From: Catalinimonas alkaloidigena
GTDB lineage: Bacteria; Bacteroidota; Bacteroidia; Cytophagales; Flexibacteraceae
Reading direction: 5' to 3'
Length of the DNA: 64,000 bases
NCBI RefSeq assembly: GCF_900100765.1
Contig: NZ_FNFO01000017.1
Location: forward strand, 1-64,000
Position 1 is the first letter of the stretch. Each line of letters opens with the position of its first letter. Shown piece by piece: positions 8,054 to 16,612 of the stretch. Made by a program: the position numbers and the translations under genes. A model generated the notes under the pieces. The model had not been told where the DNA came from and made no database searches. It worked only from the letters and a program-made list of their open reading frames with translations.

Positions 8054-9361
8054 TTAGCTTGCCGGACGCTTGACGGGAATGACGCTGAGGGGCTGGAGCG
8101 CCGCCGTTTGCTGGCAGAAATCCGTGTACGTGTATTGATACAGCCCGTCTTTCCCGATCATGATCAGCAGATCGTCGTAGGCGATCACGTCATAGGCATC
8201 CATGCCGGTGAGGTGTTGAACCAGCTCCAGTTGCTCCGGATCGGTCGTTTTGAACGTCTTCAACCCGTCGGTCCCTTCACAAATGAACAAGTTGCACCCG
8301 TCGATGCTCAGGCCGTGCGGGTTGGTCATCGGGTAGGTTTTCAGAAGCGTCGGGTTGCTGGGCTTCCGCACGTCGATCACCATGAGCTGATCCGTCCAGG
8401 CCCCTACCCCGCACAGTGAACCGGAGCGGAGCGTCACATACGCATAGTCGTCCTGGACCACCACGGGGTCGCAACTCAGGACGTGCGGGTACTGACCGAG
8501 CTGGACAGGCTGGCGGGGATCGCTGTTGTCGTAGATGTACATCCCGAACGAGGAACCGAGGTACAGCATGTCCTTATAAGCAAAAATCGTCTCCACGCCA
8601 AACCCCACGTTGAGGACCGGACCCGGCACCGGCGTGGTGGGAGTAGAAACGTCGTACAGACGCATGTCGGAGGGGCCCACCGTGTAGAGGTACCGGTCGT
8701 ATTGAGCAAAGCGCGCCATCGAGCCCGCCACCCCGACCTGAGGCGCCGCGCCGCTGCTCGAATAAGCTTTAGTATTGGCAAAGCCGCCGAACAGCACGAT
8801 AATTCCATCGCCTTCCCGCCAGCCCTGCCCGTTGTTCCACGGCGCCTCCTGGCAGTCGCTCAGCTTGACCTGTTCGGTTTCCTGCCAGTCCGAGATGAAA
8901 AGCGTGGAGTCGGTACCGGCCCAGTTGTAATTATGTGCAAACACGTTAGGAATGCGTTCGGTGACGCGGGCCGCCAGCGGATCGGTCAGGTCGATGGCCA
9001 CCAGGTCCACGTAGTTGTCGGCGTAGAGGATGCCGTCGCGCAGCGCCATGTCGACATTCCCGGGAATGGCCAGAAACTTCAGGTTCACCGGCCGCTGCGG
9101 ATCTTTGTTATCGAAAATGTGCAGCCCTTCGTGCAGCTCGTTCACCAGCAGGTAATCGCCATACCGGTAGATTTTGCCGGGCTCATGCAGGTCGCGCGGG
9201 GCTTCGTAGCCGATGCTGGTTTTCAGGTCGGCCGCCATCGTGAAAACGGGTTCGTATACCGTGTAGGTCGTGGTGGATTCGCACACGTCGGTGCAGGCTT
9301 GCAGGAGCGGCAGCAGCACAACAAGTCCGCTCAAAAGCGCAGAAGTAGAGGAGTGTTTCAT
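8054..9361 (-). CDS. LVIVD-repeat lipoprotein (copy B)
   Basis: A 435-residue surface or periplasmic lipoprotein: signal peptide with lipobox LLQAC, then a conserved stretch (CTDVCES, IGYEAPRDL) and LVIVD-type beta-propeller repeats such as GDYLLVNELHEGLHIFDN, ILYADNYVDLVAIDL and DAYDVIAYDDLLIMIG. It is a clear paralogue of the protein encoded at 10721-12046; the two share the N-terminal Cys pair, PHGL-x-IDGC and the C-terminal DAYDVIAYDDLLIMIG block almost word for word. LVIVD repeats have no assigned enzymatic function. It is the last gene of a four-gene exported cassette, 89 bases after the preceding gene. Confidence 0.85.
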   Translation of the reverse strand: MKHSSTSALLSGLVVLLPLLQACTDVCESTTTYTVYEPVFTMAADLKTSIGYEAPRDLHEPGKIYRYGDYLLVNELHEGLHIFDNKDPQRPVNLKFLAIPGNVDMALRDGILYADNYVDLVAIDLTDPLAARVTERIPNVFAHNYNWAGTDSTLFISDWQETEQVKLSDCQEAPWNNGQGWREGDGIIVLFGGFANTKAYSSSGAAPQVGVAGSMARFAQYDRYLYTVGPSDMRLYDVSTPTTPVPGPVLNVGFGVETIFAYKDMLYLGSSFGMYIYDNSDPRQPVQLGQYPHVLSCDPVVVQDDYAYVTLRSGSLCGVGAWTDQLMVIDVRKPSNPTLLKTYPMTNPHGLSIDGCNLFICEGTDGLKTFKTTDPEQLELVQHLTGMDAYDVIAYDDLLIMIGKDGLYQYTYTDFCQQTAALQPLSVIPVKRPAS

Positions 9362-10720: not shown

Positions 10721-12046
10721 TTAAATGGTAGGACGGTAGATGGGCGTCGTGCTCAGCAGCTCCACTTGTGCTTCGGCGTCGCACATGTTGTTGTAACGGT
10801 ACTGGTAAATGCCGTCCTGGCCGATCATGATCAGCAAGTCATCGTAAGCGATCACATCGTAGGCATCTATTCCTGGAAATTCGGCCACGGGCGTGATGTC
10901 GAGCGGATTTTCCGCATTAAAGGCCTTCAGGCCGTCCGCACCATCGCAGATGAACAGGCCGCACCCGTCGATGCCCAGGCCGTGCGGATTGGTCATCGGG
11001 TACGTTTTCAGGAGTGTCGGATTAGTCAGGTCGCGGATGTCCAGCACGTCGAGCTGGTTGGCGTATCCGTTGCATTCGGTGCCGTTCCGCAGGGTCACGT
11101 AGGCAAAATCCCCCTGCACCACCACCGGATCGCAGCTCTGCACATGCGCAAATCGGGAAAGTTGTTGTGGCGAAGCCGGGTCGGCGTTGTCGTAGATGTA
11201 CAGGCCGTTCTGCGAACCAATAAAGAGCTTGTTGCCGTACGGGAACAGCGTTTCGATGCCCCACCCTACGTAAATTTCGCCCGTGGCCTGAGGCGACGCG
11301 GGGGTGCTGATGTCGAACAAGGCGAGGTTGCTGCTGTTGATGGCGTAGAGGTAATGATCGTACTGGGCAAAACGCGACATCGACCCGCCAATGCCGACAG
11401 GCGGTGCAGCACTGCTGCCTAGGGCCGAGTTGGCAGTGGCGCTCATCATCCGGCCGTCGGCGGCGTAGTTGATGGTGCCGCACCAGCCTCCGTACCAGAT
11501 GACCGGCTGGGACTGGCAGTCACCTTTTTCTACTTTTTCGGTCTCGACCCATTCGGTCAGGACCTGCTGGACCGCATTGCCTTGCGCATCCACAGCCGCA
11601 AAGACCTGGTACTGTTCCACAAAGGCGCTCTCGATGCGGCCCACTTCGCGGGCGTTTAACGGATCGGAAATGTCGAAGGCCACCAGATCGATGTAGTTGT
11701 CGGCATACAGCACGTCGTCGCGCACCAATATGTCCACATTCCCCGGAATTTTCAGAAACCGGAGGTTGACCGGACGGCGCGGATCTTTATTGTCCAGAAT
11801 GTGAATGCCCTCGTTGGGCTCGTTCACCAAGAGGTAATCACCGTAACGGAAGATTTTGCCCGGCGTTTCGATTTTATGCGGTGCCTCGTAGCCGATGCTA
11901 TTTTTAAACTCTTCGCGCTGGGTGTAGACGGCCTCGTAGGTCGTGTAGGTATTCGTACGCTCGCACGTATCGGTGCAGGCTTGCAGCAACGGTAGCGCCA
12001 AGGCCAGGAGCCCGATGCGTCCGGAGAGGGAATAAAGTTTTTTCAT
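10721..12046 (-). CDS. LVIVD-repeat lipoprotein (copy A)
   Basis: A 441-residue lipoprotein, first gene of a four-gene exported cassette. The start at 12046 gives signal MKKLYSLSGRIGLLALAL and lipobox LLQACTDTC. Then come LVIVD-type repeats: GDYLLVNEPNEGIHILDN, VLYADNYIDLVAFDI, FAYVTLRNGTECNG and DAYDVIAYDDLLIMIG. It is closely similar to the protein at 8054-9361. It differs from copy B by a longer insertion around residues 165-225 (VLTEWVETEKVEKGDCQSQPVI...). LVIVD repeats form beta-propeller-like surface structures; the partner or ligand is unknown. Confidence 0.85.
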   Translation of the reverse strand: MKKLYSLSGRIGLLALALPLLQACTDTCERTNTYTTYEAVYTQREEFKNSIGYEAPHKIETPGKIFRYGDYLLVNEPNEGIHILDNKDPRRPVNLRFLKIPGNVDILVRDDVLYADNYIDLVAFDISDPLNAREVGRIESAFVEQYQVFAAVDAQGNAVQQVLTEWVETEKVEKGDCQSQPVIWYGGWCGTINYAADGRMMSATANSALGSSAAPPVGIGGSMSRFAQYDHYLYAINSSNLALFDISTPASPQATGEIYVGWGIETLFPYGNKLFIGSQNGLYIYDNADPASPQQLSRFAHVQSCDPVVVQGDFAYVTLRNGTECNGYANQLDVLDIRDLTNPTLLKTYPMTNPHGLGIDGCGLFICDGADGLKAFNAENPLDITPVAEFPGIDAYDVIAYDDLLIMIGQDGIYQYRYNNMCDAEAQVELLSTTPIYRPTI

Positions 12047-12167
12047 GGAGCGTCTTGTTAGCTGGTTACAGACAAGACGGAGCAAGGCACAAAAATGCGG
12101 CTTGGCCTTCCGAATATTCTTTCTCCGTAAAGTAATATTCGTCGGTGTTGGCGGGCAGCTCTACGAA

Positions 12168-12230: not shown

Positions 12231-13037
12231 TTACGAATGTGAAGTAGCCGTCTGTTCGACTTCTTCCAGCACCAATTGCAGGAATCTGCCTACTTCGTCG
12301 ACGTCGTGCAAGCCATACTGGGCCGCCGTTTCGTGGCCGTGGTCGCCGACCAGTACGGTGATGCCCCAGTCGCGCATCTCGCGGAAGGCGTCTTCGTCGG
12401 TCAGGTCATCGCCCAGGTACACCGGTAGCATCTCTTCCGGCGAAAGTTCCAGCGTATCGACCAGCCAGCGAATCGACTTTCCTTTGTGCCAGTCGTAGTT
12501 GGGTTTCAGCTCCACAATGCCTTTGCCACCCGCAGGTTTCAGGGTTTCGTGGCGCTGGGCCGCCTGCTCGGCTTCCTGCTTTACCCGTTCCTGTTGCTCA
12601 GGCGCTACCTGCCGGTAATGGACCGCAATGGCGTATTTTTTCCGTTCCACCTGCGCGCCCGGCACGTCGGCCAGCGCATCGCGCAGTTCTTGCTCGGCAG
12701 CGTCGAGGGCGGGCAGCGCATCGATGCCGGCGTGGTGCTGTTCTTCCAACTCAGGGCCTTTGATGTCGAACCCGTGGCTTCCTACGTAAATCAGTTCGGG
12801 TAAATCCACCTTATCGGCCACGTTGGCCCGGTCGCGTCCACTGACAATGATCAGCATGCGCTGCGAGGCAATGCGGTCCAGCAAACGACGCATGGTCTCC
12901 GACAACAGGGCTTTTTCCGGGTCGGGCACGATGGGCGTCAGCGTTCCGTCGTAGTCGAGAAAGAGGGCAATTTGACGATTTCCGAATTGCGCTTTAATCT
13001 CGTCGAAATGGTCAAGCGCGGAAGGAAGTTGTGGCAT
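12231..13037 (-). CDS. otsB: Trehalose-6-phosphate phosphatase
   Basis: A 268-residue HAD-superfamily phosphatase that dephosphorylates trehalose-6-phosphate. Seen: motif I DYDGT at residues 28-32 with the nucleophile D28, motif II IIVSGRD near 66, SHGFDIKGP near 92, a cap region, and motif IV YLGDDLTDEDAF near 225. Length matches stand-alone OtsB. No trehalose-6-phosphate synthase (OtsA) is seen beside it; in many Bacteroidota OtsA and OtsB are fused or adjacent, so OtsA must be elsewhere or absent. Its own terminator follows. Confidence 0.9.
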   Translation of the reverse strand: MPQLPSALDHFDEIKAQFGNRQIALFLDYDGTLTPIVPDPEKALLSETMRRLLDRIASQRMLIIVSGRDRANVADKVDLPELIYVGSHGFDIKGPELEEQHHAGIDALPALDAAEQELRDALADVPGAQVERKKYAIAVHYRQVAPEQQERVKQEAEQAAQRHETLKPAGGKGIVELKPNYDWHKGKSIRWLVDTLELSPEEMLPVYLGDDLTDEDAFREMRDWGITVLVGDHGHETAAQYGLHDVDEVGRFLQLVLEEVEQTATSHS

Positions 13038-13201: not shown

Positions 13202-14518
13202 TCACTGACTTACAATGAGATACATCAACCCGGCAGCAAACAGCGTATTCATCAGATTGACCGTATGGTTGCTCAGGTAGCCGTGCCGCTGCAGTGTGGC
13301 CCCCAATACGGAGTCGACGGCGTTGCCCAGTACCCCGGCCAGCCCCACTCCCGCCGCCACTGGCCACGCGTGCGTAAGGCCAAACGCCACCGCCAGCAGC
13401 AGACTTCCTGCAGCGCCCAGCAGCGTACCTTCCAGGCTGATGGCGCCGTCGCGCCCGCGCAGATCGGGTCGAAACGTGAGGATGTTCACGTAATGCCTTC
13501 CGTACACATTGCCCAGCTCCGAGGCCAACGTATCGGCCGTGGCAGAAGCCAGACTCCCCGCCTGCATGGCCTGCCAGAGGGTAGCCTGCGCCGGAAACCA
13601 CCAGGCCATCAGTCCGCATACGGCTGCTACCCCGCCGTTCGCGACAGCATTGCGCACCGAGCGCTGCCCCCGGTTGGCTTCCGCCACGCCCAGTCGTTCT
13701 TTCTGCGCCAGTCGCCAGCGCGAGGCACCCGACCCCAGCACGAAAAAGAGCAGCAACAGGAACAGCCCCGTCCAGCCGCCACCCATAAAAATGGCTACGG
13801 CCACTCCCCACCCGGTCAAGCCACCCACCAGGTCCATTCGTTTGGACACCACGGCGCTCGCCGCCGCCAGCCCTACAGCCCCGAGGGCCCAGCCTACGCC
13901 GACCGGCGCAGCCCATTGTTCCGCCGGAGGCAACTCTACGACCAAGTAGGCCACCGTCGCGGCCACCAGCGGCACCACAAGGTTATCGTTTAGACTGTCG
14001 GCTACCGATTCGGCTAGGGCGGCGCTACCGATGGCCCACAGCAGGACAATGGCCCAGGCATGTTCAGTCAGGGGAGATAACGTTTCGGCGGGCAGCAGAT
14101 GCAAAAGTCCAGCCGTTCCCAGCCCTCCGGCCAGGCAAAACGCGAGCGATCCTTCCCAGGTTTTGTGACGATTCCAGGGAAGCGGATGCCGCCCGAACCG
14201 ACGACCGATCAGCGTAGCACACCCATCGCCAAACGCCATGGCCCCCCACCCGACGGCCAGGAACACCTGTTGTCGGAAAAAAATCAGAGAGAGCAGTAGC
14301 AGAATGGCCGGATAGGCCAACAGGCCAATAGAAAAGCCCCGTTGACGGTCGGCGGGTCGCTCTAGCGCCCGCTGCGTAAGCCGAGGTAGCGCAATAAGGT
14401 TAAACGCCAGCGCCAGCAGACACGCCGCGCTGATCCCAAGAGGGGAAAGCCGCCCGATCAGGCACGCAAATCCTACCATGCCGATGTGGACGACTTTCCG
14501 CCAGGTTTCCGGGTGCAT
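13202..14518 (-). CDS. Two-domain membrane prenol kinase: phytol-kinase-like domain fused to DUF92
   Basis: A 438-residue integral membrane protein made of two families usually encoded separately. Residues 1-190 resemble CTP-dependent phytol/dolichol kinases and CDP-diglyceride synthetases: GDGCATLIGRRFGRHPLPW at 97-115 followed by HKTWEGS at 118-124, among several membrane segments. Residues 200-438 are a DUF92/TMEM19-like domain, with SATADTLASELG at 325-336 and GNAVDSVLGATLQRHG at 398-413. In plants and cyanobacteria VTE5-type enzymes phosphorylate phytol and VTE6 (DUF92) adds the second phosphate, so one polypeptide could carry out both steps on a polyprenol or phytol. That combined role is inference. 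Confidence 0.8.
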   Translation of the reverse strand: MHPETWRKVVHIGMVGFACLIGRLSPLGISAACLLALAFNLIALPRLTQRALERPADRQRGFSIGLLAYPAILLLLSLIFFRQQVFLAVGWGAMAFGDGCATLIGRRFGRHPLPWNRHKTWEGSLAFCLAGGLGTAGLLHLLPAETLSPLTEHAWAIVLLWAIGSAALAESVADSLNDNLVVPLVAATVAYLVVELPPAEQWAAPVGVGWALGAVGLAAASAVVSKRMDLVGGLTGWGVAVAIFMGGGWTGLFLLLLFFVLGSGASRWRLAQKERLGVAEANRGQRSVRNAVANGGVAAVCGLMAWWFPAQATLWQAMQAGSLASATADTLASELGNVYGRHYVNILTFRPDLRGRDGAISLEGTLLGAAGSLLLAVAFGLTHAWPVAAGVGLAGVLGNAVDSVLGATLQRHGYLSNHTVNLMNTLFAAGLMYLIVSQ

Positions 14519-14553: not shown

Positions 14554-14829
14554 CTAAAACTGGGTATCGTGGTTGGTTTGCTGCCGTTCGCGCGTTTGCG
14601 CTTCGCGCCGCTCTTCGCGGGCCACGGCCTCGCGGTTGCGCAGATTCTCGTTCCGGTCGGTGGCCGGTGTGGCATCGCGCACGTTTGCCTGCCCCCAGGC
14701 GTCGTCGGCGCGCCGTTCGGCCGGCGATTCGGTTTTACGCTTCATGGCCCGAAAGCCGATATAAATTCCCAGGGCCAGAAAAACGATCAGTCCGATCAAA
14801 AAGCCGCCTGTGATCCAAAGAAGTGTCAT
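14554..14829 (-). CDS. Small membrane-anchored protein with charged tail
   Basis: A 91-residue protein of unknown function. Residues 3-27 form one transmembrane helix (LLWITGGFLIGLIVFLALGI), followed by a strongly charged, Arg/Glu/Gln-rich low-complexity tail (ADDAWGQANVRDA, REAVAREERREAQTRERQQ) predicted to be disordered or helical in the cytoplasm. It lies 35 bases upstream of the kinase-fusion gene on the same strand and is probably in the same transcript. Confidence 0.6.
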   Translation of the reverse strand: MTLLWITGGFLIGLIVFLALGIYIGFRAMKRKTESPAERRADDAWGQANVRDATPATDRNENLRNREAVAREERREAQTRERQQTNHDTQF

Positions 14830-14938: not shown

Positions 14939-15610
14939 ATGTACCGTTTCTGCTTCCTCTGCGGCCTTCTTTTGTGGACCACGGGTGTGTGGGCGCAGGC
15001 CGCCTTCCAACCCCGGCCCGGCGATTTGTTGTTCCAGGACCTGGACTGCGGTCCGCTGTGCGACGCCATCGAAACCGTTACGGAAGGCGTGGCGGGCGCC
15101 AACTTCTCGCACGTCGGCATTGTTTCGTCGGTAGAGGGCGAAGATGTCTGGGTAACAGAAGCGGTTTCGGCGGGAGTAAAACGGACCCGACTGGCCGATT
15201 TTCTGGCGCGCAGCCACGACGCCGAAGGCCATCCCAAGGTGCTGGTCGGTCGGTTGAAACCGGCGTATCAAGCGCTGATCCCCGCCGCTCTGGCGCAGTT
15301 GCCCCGGTACGAGGGTAAGCCGTATGACGGCGTGTATCGCATGGACGACAGTACGTACTACTGCTCTGAGTTGGTGTACGCCATTTTCTTACCGGAGAGT
15401 CCACAGCCGCTGTTTTCCGTGCAACCCATGACGTTCAACGATCCGGCCACCGGGCAGCCTTTCCCGGCCTGGGTCGACTATTACCAGCAACTCGGGTTGC
15501 CCATTCCGGAAGGCGAACCGGGCCTCAACCCCGGCAGCGTTTCCCGTGCCGAGGCGCTTGAAATTGTGCACGCCTACGGACGCCCCAGCGGCTGGCAACC
15601 GCTAAAATAA
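14939..15610 (+). CDS. Exported YiiX/YebB-like permuted papain-fold hydrolase
   Basis: A 223-residue protein of the YiiX-type permuted NlpC/P60 superfamily (amidase or lipid-hydrolase fold). A Sec signal (MYRFCFLCGLLLWTTGVWAQ) supports the start at 14939; the frame is open to 14912 but the extra residues are not signal-like. The domain begins with RPGDLLFQDLDCGPLC, has the catalytic histidine in FSHVGIVSS (about residue 59) and the catalytic cysteine in YYCSELVYAIF (about residue 142), the order expected in permuted members. It probably acts on envelope peptides or lipids. Its 3' end overlaps by nine bases the 3' end of the convergent acetyltransferase gene. Confidence 0.8.
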   Translation: MYRFCFLCGLLLWTTGVWAQAAFQPRPGDLLFQDLDCGPLCDAIETVTEGVAGANFSHVGIVSSVEGEDVWVTEAVSAGVKRTRLADFLARSHDAEGHPKVLVGRLKPAYQALIPAALAQLPRYEGKPYDGVYRMDDSTYYCSELVYAIFLPESPQPLFSVQPMTFNDPATGQPFPAWVDYYQQLGLPIPEGEPGLNPGSVSRAEALEIVHAYGRPSGWQPLK

Positions 15611-16612
15611 GGTCGGAATAAAGTCAGGTGGGCGGCGTCTGCGCGTAGGTGTAGACGTCCAGCGCGTAGCGAACGCCCGTGGTTTCGCCGAAGGGAATAG
15701 CTTTTCGAAGTGCATACCGACTTTCTCCAGCACCCGAATCGAAGCATCGTTCGCCCGCAGGGCTCTGCCCACCACGCGCGTCAGTCCCAGCATTTCGAAG
15801 CCATAGGTCAGGCAGGCCCGGGCCGCTTCGGTGGCGTAGCCTTGCCCCCAGGCGTGGCGGTAAAACCGGTACCCCAGGTCGGTCTCGCCCAACTCCGGCA
15901 GGTATTTCAGCCCACACCAGCCCAGGTATTCGCCGGTTTCGCGGCGGAGCACCGTCCAGCGGCCGTACCCGTAGGGCCGATACGTCGTTTCAGAATAATG
16001 CTCCAGGAAGGCACGCGCTTCCCGAAAGCTGCTGAATGCGGTGTCGCCGGTGTAACGCATCACGTCCGGGTCCTGATTCAAGGCGTAAAAGTCGGTGGCA
16101 TCGGCCAGCGTGAAGGGAAAAAGCAACAAGCGGCGGGTCTCCAGCATGGGTGGGGGTACCGAAACCTCCATCCGGTAATTGCGGAACCACTGGCCGCGGA
16201 CTTCTACCTGTTGCGCCTGCACCACCCGAAAACCCATCGACTCGAATACCGGACGCGCCGTAATGCTGGCTTCGGTCGTCACGCGCGCGAGGCGTTGCGC
16301 AGCGGCGTGGTGCAACAACCGGCCAAGGAGCCGACTGGCGATTCCGTTCCCCTGATGGTCGGCATGGACAAACAAAACATCCAGATAGCCTTCCGCCGTC
16401 AACGAAGCCATCCCGGTGAGTTGTCCCCCCTGTTCCGTAACCAGAAAATGGTGTTGGGTAAGTCGCTCCTGCCACCGGTCCACGTTTTCACTGCCGGCCG
16501 CCCAGGCCGCTACCTGCGCCGCGTCGTAATGGCGGATGCTGACGTTTCGCACCGTATGGGCGAAGAGGGTGGTAACGGCCGGAAGGTCGGCCAGGGTAGC
16601 ACGGCGTATCAT
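15602..16612 (-). CDS. Double GNAT acetyltransferase with a 3' frameshift
   Basis: Two acetyltransferase domains in one frame. Residues 1-155 are a complete GNAT (YLDVLFVHADHQGNGIASRLLGRLL holds the acetyl-CoA loop; FESMGF follows). Residues 160 onwards are a RimJ/RimL-type GNAT (ETRRLLLFPF, GWCGLKYLPELGETDLGYRF, WGQGYATEAARACL, RVLEKVGMHFEK). After EKVGMHFEK the frame turns to an Arg/Pro-rich tail ending at 15602. The neighbouring frame instead continues the family ending perfectly (KAIPFGETTGVRYALDVYTY, stop at 15624-15626). One base added in the short T run at 15702-15705 would join them. The gene is either frameshifted near its end, or the assembled base is missing. Substrates are unknown. 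Confidence 0.7.
   Translation of the reverse strand: MIRRATLADLPAVTTLFAHTVRNVSIRHYDAAQVAAWAAGSENVDRWQERLTQHHFLVTEQGGQLTGMASLTAEGYLDVLFVHADHQGNGIASRLLGRLLHHAAAQRLARVTTEASITARPVFESMGFRVVQAQQVEVRGQWFRNYRMEVSVPPPMLETRRLLLFPFTLADATDFYALNQDPDVMRYTGDTAFSSFREARAFLEHYSETTYRPYGYGRWTVLRRETGEYLGWCGLKYLPELGETDLGYRFYRHAWGQGYATEAARACLTYGFEMLGLTRVVGRALRANDASIRVLEKVGMHFEKLFPSAKPRAFATRWTSTPTRRRRPPDFIPTLF

What the first reader, a model, noticed from the sequence alone, without database searches (positions are those of the whole stretch)
13202..14518. Phytol-kinase-like and DUF92 (VTE6-like) domains fused in one protein
Plant and cyanobacterial VTE5 and VTE6 act in series to make phytyl diphosphate from phytol; here both domain types are in one polypeptide in a non-phototroph. 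It could salvage prenols in two steps. Function in Bacteroidota is not known to me.
Basis: partly seen in the sequence, partly recalled or inferred. Interest (0 to 1): 0.6.

Follow-up and report, generated by a model that had tools for sequence, protein, structure and literature searches.

The report
Fused two-step prenol kinase candidate
One membrane protein joins two related enzyme halves that, judged by their relatives, probably add two phosphates in a row to a fatty isoprenoid alcohol; this fusion is real but old, common in bacteria and already described in an archaeon, so it is an untested salvage enzyme rather than a surprise.

Summary
One open frame (13202-14518, minus strand, 438 aa) has an N-half (1 to about 205) of the CdsA/dolichol-kinase fold and a C-half that is a clear DUF92 (PF01940, E 3e-47). 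The N-half has no Pfam hit of its own. It is placed by profile-profile comparison with CdsA (probability 97%, E 4e-11), by structure (its top three rows are TmCdsA and CarS), and by motifs kept across 27 relatives. Both halves keep their conserved acidic and lysine residues.

Best reading: a bifunctional CTP-dependent prenol kinase plus prenyl-phosphate kinase, as in the VTE5-VTE6 pair. The fold and pairing are shown here. The reactions and substrate are inferred. A VTE5-specific match could not be tested.

The fusion is not unusual. About 60 of 247 sampled Acidobacteriota carry a full-length match, and well over 100 of 395 sampled genomes of the window's phylum carry the same order of domains. 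A 2015 paper describes a Sec59-like plus DUF92 fusion in Methanosarcina and predicts a role in isoprenoid metabolism. In the window's own order the fusion is rare (2 of 194), and standalone DUF92 prevails, often with no detectable N-half in the genome. New member of a known kind; interest 0.22.

The parts
13202..14518 (-). Fused gene, 438 aa: N-terminal CdsA/dolichol-kinase-superfamily domain plus C-terminal DUF92 (VTE6-like) domain
13904..14518 (-). N-half, residues 1 to about 205; invariant in 27 relatives: R7, H11, G65, P70, D98, A101, G105, K119, G123, E170, D178, N179, P183
13202..13882 (-). DUF92 half, residues 213-438; invariant in 45 relatives: K273, R286, N294, D329, E334, G336, G358, G364, D402, S403, G406, N417, N421
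14554..14829 (-). Possible small 91-aa membrane protein 35 bases upstream on the same strand; membership in the unit is only a possibility
   Evidence: open frame only
12231..13037 (-). Trehalose-phosphatase (otsB-like) gene downstream on the same strand, 164 bases away; not thought to be part of the function

Best explanation
A bifunctional integral-membrane lipid kinase for isoprenoid-alcohol salvage. Shown: two complete CdsA-fold domains in one chain, each keeping the conserved acidic and basic residues of its family, conserved together in distant relatives. Inferred: the N-half transfers the gamma-phosphate of CTP (or another NTP) to a prenol, and the DUF92 half adds the second phosphate to the prenyl monophosphate, giving a prenyl diphosphate usable by UbiA-type prenyltransferases such as MenA, which this genome encodes. 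Most likely substrates are C15-C20 prenols (farnesol, geranylgeraniol, perhaps environmental phytol); the choice among them is a guess.
For: DUF92 at E 3e-47. N-half to CdsA: probability 97.2%, E 4.2e-11; DUF92 half to CdsA: probability 86%, E 4.9e-6; the two halves to each other: E 1.2e-4, probability 56%. Models: whole protein pLDDT 94.9, pTM 0.89; N-half pLDDT 93. N-half best rows TmCdsA and CarS, Z 9.4, 9.2, 8.3, next unrelated 7.2; DUF92-half best rows CarS Z 6.9 and TmCdsA Z 6.3. Motifs are invariant in full-length relatives from several phyla. N- and C-half tree distances agree over 34 fused proteins, Spearman 0.88, so the halves have travelled together. Literature: VTE5 and VTE6 act in series and prefer CTP (PMC9782597); fused archaeal relatives were predicted to act in isoprenoid metabolism at a step needing a kinase (PMC5898192). 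The genome has MenA, CtaB and other UbiA proteins and a geranylgeranyl-reductase-family protein that could use or modify such products.
Against: No biochemical data for any bacterial fused protein were found. The N-half matches no curated kinase model and could not be compared with authentic VTE5. No isoprenoid gene is a conserved neighbour. Many Cytophagales keep DUF92 without a detectable N-half in the genome, so DUF92 cannot always depend on this salvage partner. De novo prenyl diphosphate synthesis presumably exists, so the need for salvage is not shown. Z scores under about 13 for helical bundles are not decisive alone (note).
Confidence: 0.6

Rival explanations
1. A long-chain polyprenol enzyme: the N-half phosphorylates undecaprenol-like or dolichol-like lipids for carrier-lipid recycling, and the DUF92 half makes or handles the diphosphate form.
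For: The N-half is as close to the Sec59 type as to anything tested. Archaeal DUF92 genes sit beside uppS (PMC5898192). In several Holophagae the fused gene follows an LptD-like gene, and in a set of the long-fused loci a gene of the size of the neighbour typed as TolQ in one of them follows, both envelope settings.
Against: Those neighbours differ between lineages. Carrier-lipid recycling needs the monophosphate, so a second kinase would be wasteful. VTE6, the one characterised DUF92 protein, acts on phytyl phosphate (PMC9782597).
Confidence: 0.2
2. One or both halves are nucleotidyl transferases of CdsA or CarS chemistry (forming CDP-lipids) rather than kinases.
For: Both halves' best solved relatives are CdsA and CarS, and the N-half profile aligns with CdsA.
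Against: The own genome has a separate ordinary CdsA. Kinases of the dolichol/phytol type are known to share this superfamily (PMC5088576; PMC5898192), and VTE6 is a DUF92 kinase.
Confidence: 0.1
3. The N-half is a decaying or structural remnant and only the DUF92 half is active.
For: Standalone DUF92 proteins are nested among fused ones, suggesting that the N-half is dispensable and lost repeatedly.
Against: The N-half of this protein keeps every residue that is invariant in 27 relatives, and its tree distances track those of the C-half.
Confidence: 0.07

Closest known systems
Sec59-like plus DUF92 fusion of Methanosarcina (Mbar_A3310, arCOG02245; PMC5898192)
   Same: Same domain order; both halves assigned to the cytidylyltransferase superfamily with the two aspartates conserved; predicted role in isoprenoid metabolism.
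   Different: Archaeal; not aligned with the window protein here.
Plant and cyanobacterial VTE5 (phytol kinase) and VTE6 (phytyl-phosphate kinase)
   Same: DUF92 half is in the VTE6 family (PF01940/COG1836); N-half has the same superfamily type and, from memory, a similar GD...A...G / K(S,T)..G motif.
   Different: Separate polypeptides in plants; phototrophic setting. VTE5 sequences could not be fetched for a direct test.
Compact fused proteins of Acidobacteriota and Kapaibacteria (e.g. Sulfidibacter corallicola L088, Acanthopleuribacter pedis L093, Kapaibacterium L092)
   Same: Full-length end-to-end relatives, 445-457 aa, 45-50% identity.
   Different: Only the neighbouring genes.
Long fused proteins (about 520-545 aa) widespread in other classes of the window's phylum
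   Same: Same domain order and the same invariant residues.
   Different: Extra N-terminal helix, longer DUF92 C-terminal loop, separate clade.

Membership tests
DUF92 / COG1836 (VTE6 family) | Match to PF01940 above the curated cut-off over the whole domain | tested here: met
   161.4 bits against 27.5, profile 4-251 of 251
DUF92 / COG1836 (VTE6 family) | Conserved D..(S)E.G, S(L)EGT, DS..G and N..VN residues | tested here: met
   D329, E334, G336, E363-G364, D402-S403, N417, N421
DUF92 / COG1836 (VTE6 family) | Prenyl-phosphate kinase activity | not testable with these tools
   needs an assay
CdsA / dolichol kinase superfamily (N-half) | Sequence-profile relation to CTP_transf_1 proteins | tested here: met
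   hhalign probability 97.2%, E 4.2e-11 with CdsA; direct PF01148 hit absent in the window protein but present in a standalone relative, E 2.2e-7
CdsA / dolichol kinase superfamily (N-half) | Shared fold with solved members | tested here: met
   TmCdsA Z 9.4 (171 residues, 5.8 A) and CarS Z 8.3 (100 residues, 2.6 A), top three rows; Z of this size is suggestive, not decisive, alone
VTE5 phytol kinase (N-half) | Closer to authentic VTE5 than to dolichol kinases or CdsA | not testable with these tools
   no VTE5, FOLK or DOLK sequence was obtainable from the held collections
VTE5 phytol kinase (N-half) | Phytol, farnesol or geranylgeraniol kinase activity with CTP | not testable with these tools
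   needs an assay
Sec59-DUF92 fused architecture | Kinase-type CdsA-fold domain N-terminal to DUF92 in one frame | tested here: met

The most novel reading that the evidence does not exclude
The fused protein is a complete two-step prenol-salvage enzyme (prenol to prenyl diphosphate in one chain) used by many non-photosynthetic bacteria, and the standalone DUF92 proteins of related genomes, which lack any detectable first kinase, have been rededicated to another phosphorylated isoprenoid. A single-chain enzyme would contradict the working consensus that salvage takes two independent enzymes.
Probability: 0.35. Interest if true: 0.45.

Novelty: new member of a known kind. Interest (0 to 1): 0.22.

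Why it matters
Few prenol and prenyl-phosphate kinases have been identified, almost all from phototrophs or parasites (PMC9782597). A single chain holding both candidate activities, available from many cultured bacteria, would be a convenient way to test the two-step salvage route outside photosynthesis and could serve as a tool for making prenyl diphosphates from alcohols. As a genomic observation it is ordinary.

Tried and rejected
A Pfam/NCBIfam name for the N-half: none at E<=1. Sequence search of solved structures with the protein and with profiles: no meaningful hit. Foldseek on both models gave no significant E-value; in the whole-model comparison the N-half matched only MATE/MurJ-type rows, which I took as chance helical arrangements because the separate N-half model gave CdsA and CarS first. 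The first genome-contig scan with the single protein found nothing; the alignment found 80 loci. A conserved isoprenoid neighbourhood was looked for and not found. The idea that the sister DUF92 in L099 is a broken fusion was checked: it is a standalone gene right after glutamine synthetase with no N-half remnant. Open papers for a statement on bacterial VTE5-VTE6 fusions: none found; the VTE6 discovery paper (vom Dorp 2015) is not held and may mention them.

Full report
What is there. The frame at 13202-14518 lies on the minus strand and encodes 438 residues without interruption. Residues 216-429 are DUF92 (PF01940, E 3.2e-47). Residues 1 to about 205 match no Pfam or NCBIfam model at E<=1. 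Both halves are membrane domains: the AlphaFold2 model of the whole protein has mean pLDDT 94.9 and pTM 0.89, with about seven long helices in each half.

What the N-half is. Ten N-halves of fused relatives were aligned (A3). In the order-wide search that profile found, besides fused proteins, standalone 220-230 aa proteins and, more weakly, 280-310 aa frames; those tested are CdsA (PF01148 E 2e-60 and 3e-55), and one standalone protein hits PF01148 at 2e-7. Profile-profile comparison of 27 N-halves (A7) with 12 CdsA proteins gave probability 97.2% and E 4.2e-11, with GDGCATLIGRRFG and KTWEGS lying on the CdsA motifs. The N-half folded alone (pLDDT 93) has TmCdsA (Z 9.4 and 9.2) and CarS (Z 8.3, 2.6 A over 100 residues) as its first three rows, above the next row at 7.2. 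Invariant over 27 sequences: R7, H11, G65, P70, D98, A101, G105, K119, G123, E170, D178, N179, P183. These lines together place it in the CdsA/dolichol-kinase superfamily. They do not show that it is a VTE5.

What the C-half is. DUF92 by curated model. Its structural first rows are CarS (Z 6.9) and TmCdsA (Z 6.3), and its profile aligns with CdsA at probability 86%, E 4.9e-6. The two halves align with each other at E 1.2e-4, probability 56%, as expected if they are distant copies of one fold. Catalytic-type residues D329, E334, D402, N417 and N421 are invariant.

How common the fusion is. In the family none of 10 other sampled genomes has the gene. In the order (Cytophagales, inferred because one order genome, G559, matches the contig position of the named Flexithrix dorotheae record) 25 of 194 genomes have DUF92, and only the window and G442 have it fused. 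Elsewhere in the phylum a longer fused form (about 520-545 aa) is widespread: 226 of 395 sampled genomes have DUF92, and well over 100 of the listed places match both halves in one frame (counted by eye from the listing). Named compact relatives come from Acidobacteriota, Kapaibacteria and scattered Bacteroidota MAGs, 40-52% identical end to end. In Acidobacteriota about 60 of 247 sampled genomes have a full-length match (counted by eye).

History. In a DUF92 tree of 62 sequences, standalone proteins are nested among fused ones and at least six changes are forced by well-supported branches. The window's nearest DUF92 is a standalone one (L099), which sits after glutamine synthetase with no N-half remnant. 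Among 34 fused proteins, N-half and C-half tree distances agree (Spearman 0.88). The simplest reading is an old fusion and repeated loss of the N-half in Bacteroidota; since the trees are unrooted, sampling is uneven and one row has a long branch, repeated gain is not excluded. Several DUF92-bearing Cytophagales (for example f3 g8 and Flexithrix) have no N-half match in the genome, others carry both parts on different contigs, and family f67 has N-halves without DUF92.

Context. The gene is followed at 164 bases by a trehalose-phosphatase gene and preceded at 35 bases by a possible 91-aa membrane protein. Neighbours in relatives differ: LptD-like in Holophagae, TolQ in one long-fused locus (with genes of that size at the same place in others), enolase, asparaginase, tRNA-guanine transglycosylase. 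Context therefore gives no substrate. The genome has one CdsA, one DUF92, MenA, CtaB, further UbiA proteins including EboC, a geranylgeranyl-reductase-family protein above its cut-off, and no type II reaction-centre protein.

Function. Known: VTE5 and FOLK are prenol kinases and VTE6 a phytyl-phosphate kinase, preferring CTP; few other such genes have been identified, and the stated consensus is two separate enzymes (PMC9782597; PMC10849223). A 2015 survey describes an N-terminal Sec59-like domain fused to the DUF92 domain in Methanosarcina barkeri and suggests a kinase step in isoprenoid biosynthesis (PMC5898192). By analogy the window protein most likely turns a prenol into its diphosphate in two steps. 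Confidence: both halves in the CdsA superfamily, about 0.97; N-half a lipid-alcohol kinase, about 0.8; C-half a prenyl-phosphate kinase, about 0.7; C15-C20 substrate, about 0.5; the combination as stated, 0.6.

Verdict. Its interpretation is reasonable but the biochemical label 'phytol kinase' is untested, and the fusion is widespread and already on record. New member of a known kind.

Noticed in passing
window 14554-14829 (-): A 91-aa frame with one N-terminal hydrophobic helix and a charged tail lies 35 bases upstream of the fused gene on the same strand and may be co-transcribed.
   Followed up: partly
window 8054-9361 (-) and 10721-12085 (-): Two related secreted beta-propeller-type proteins with LVIVD repeats near each other; only the second passes the Pfam cut-off.
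   Followed up: no
window 15602-16612 (-): A protein made of two different GNAT acetyltransferase domains in one chain.
   Followed up: no
Cytophagales genomes such as Flexithrix dorotheae (L102) and Hymenobacter (L098, L103): DUF92 occurs alone; in the order-wide search G559 (the apparent Flexithrix genome) and the genomes of f3 g8 show no N-half-type kinase, so the source of its presumed prenyl-phosphate substrate is unclear.
   Followed up: partly
G000:C10:258793-262383 (L186, L191): In the same genome a type III polyketide synthase-like gene, an unusual UbiA-family prenyltransferase and a geranylgeranyl-reductase-like flavoprotein lie within about 4 kb, which looks like a small prenylated-polyketide cluster.
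   Followed up: no
L088, L089, L090, L093, L094: In Holophagae the fused gene directly follows a conserved pair of genes, of which the one tested matches LptD_2.
   Followed up: partly
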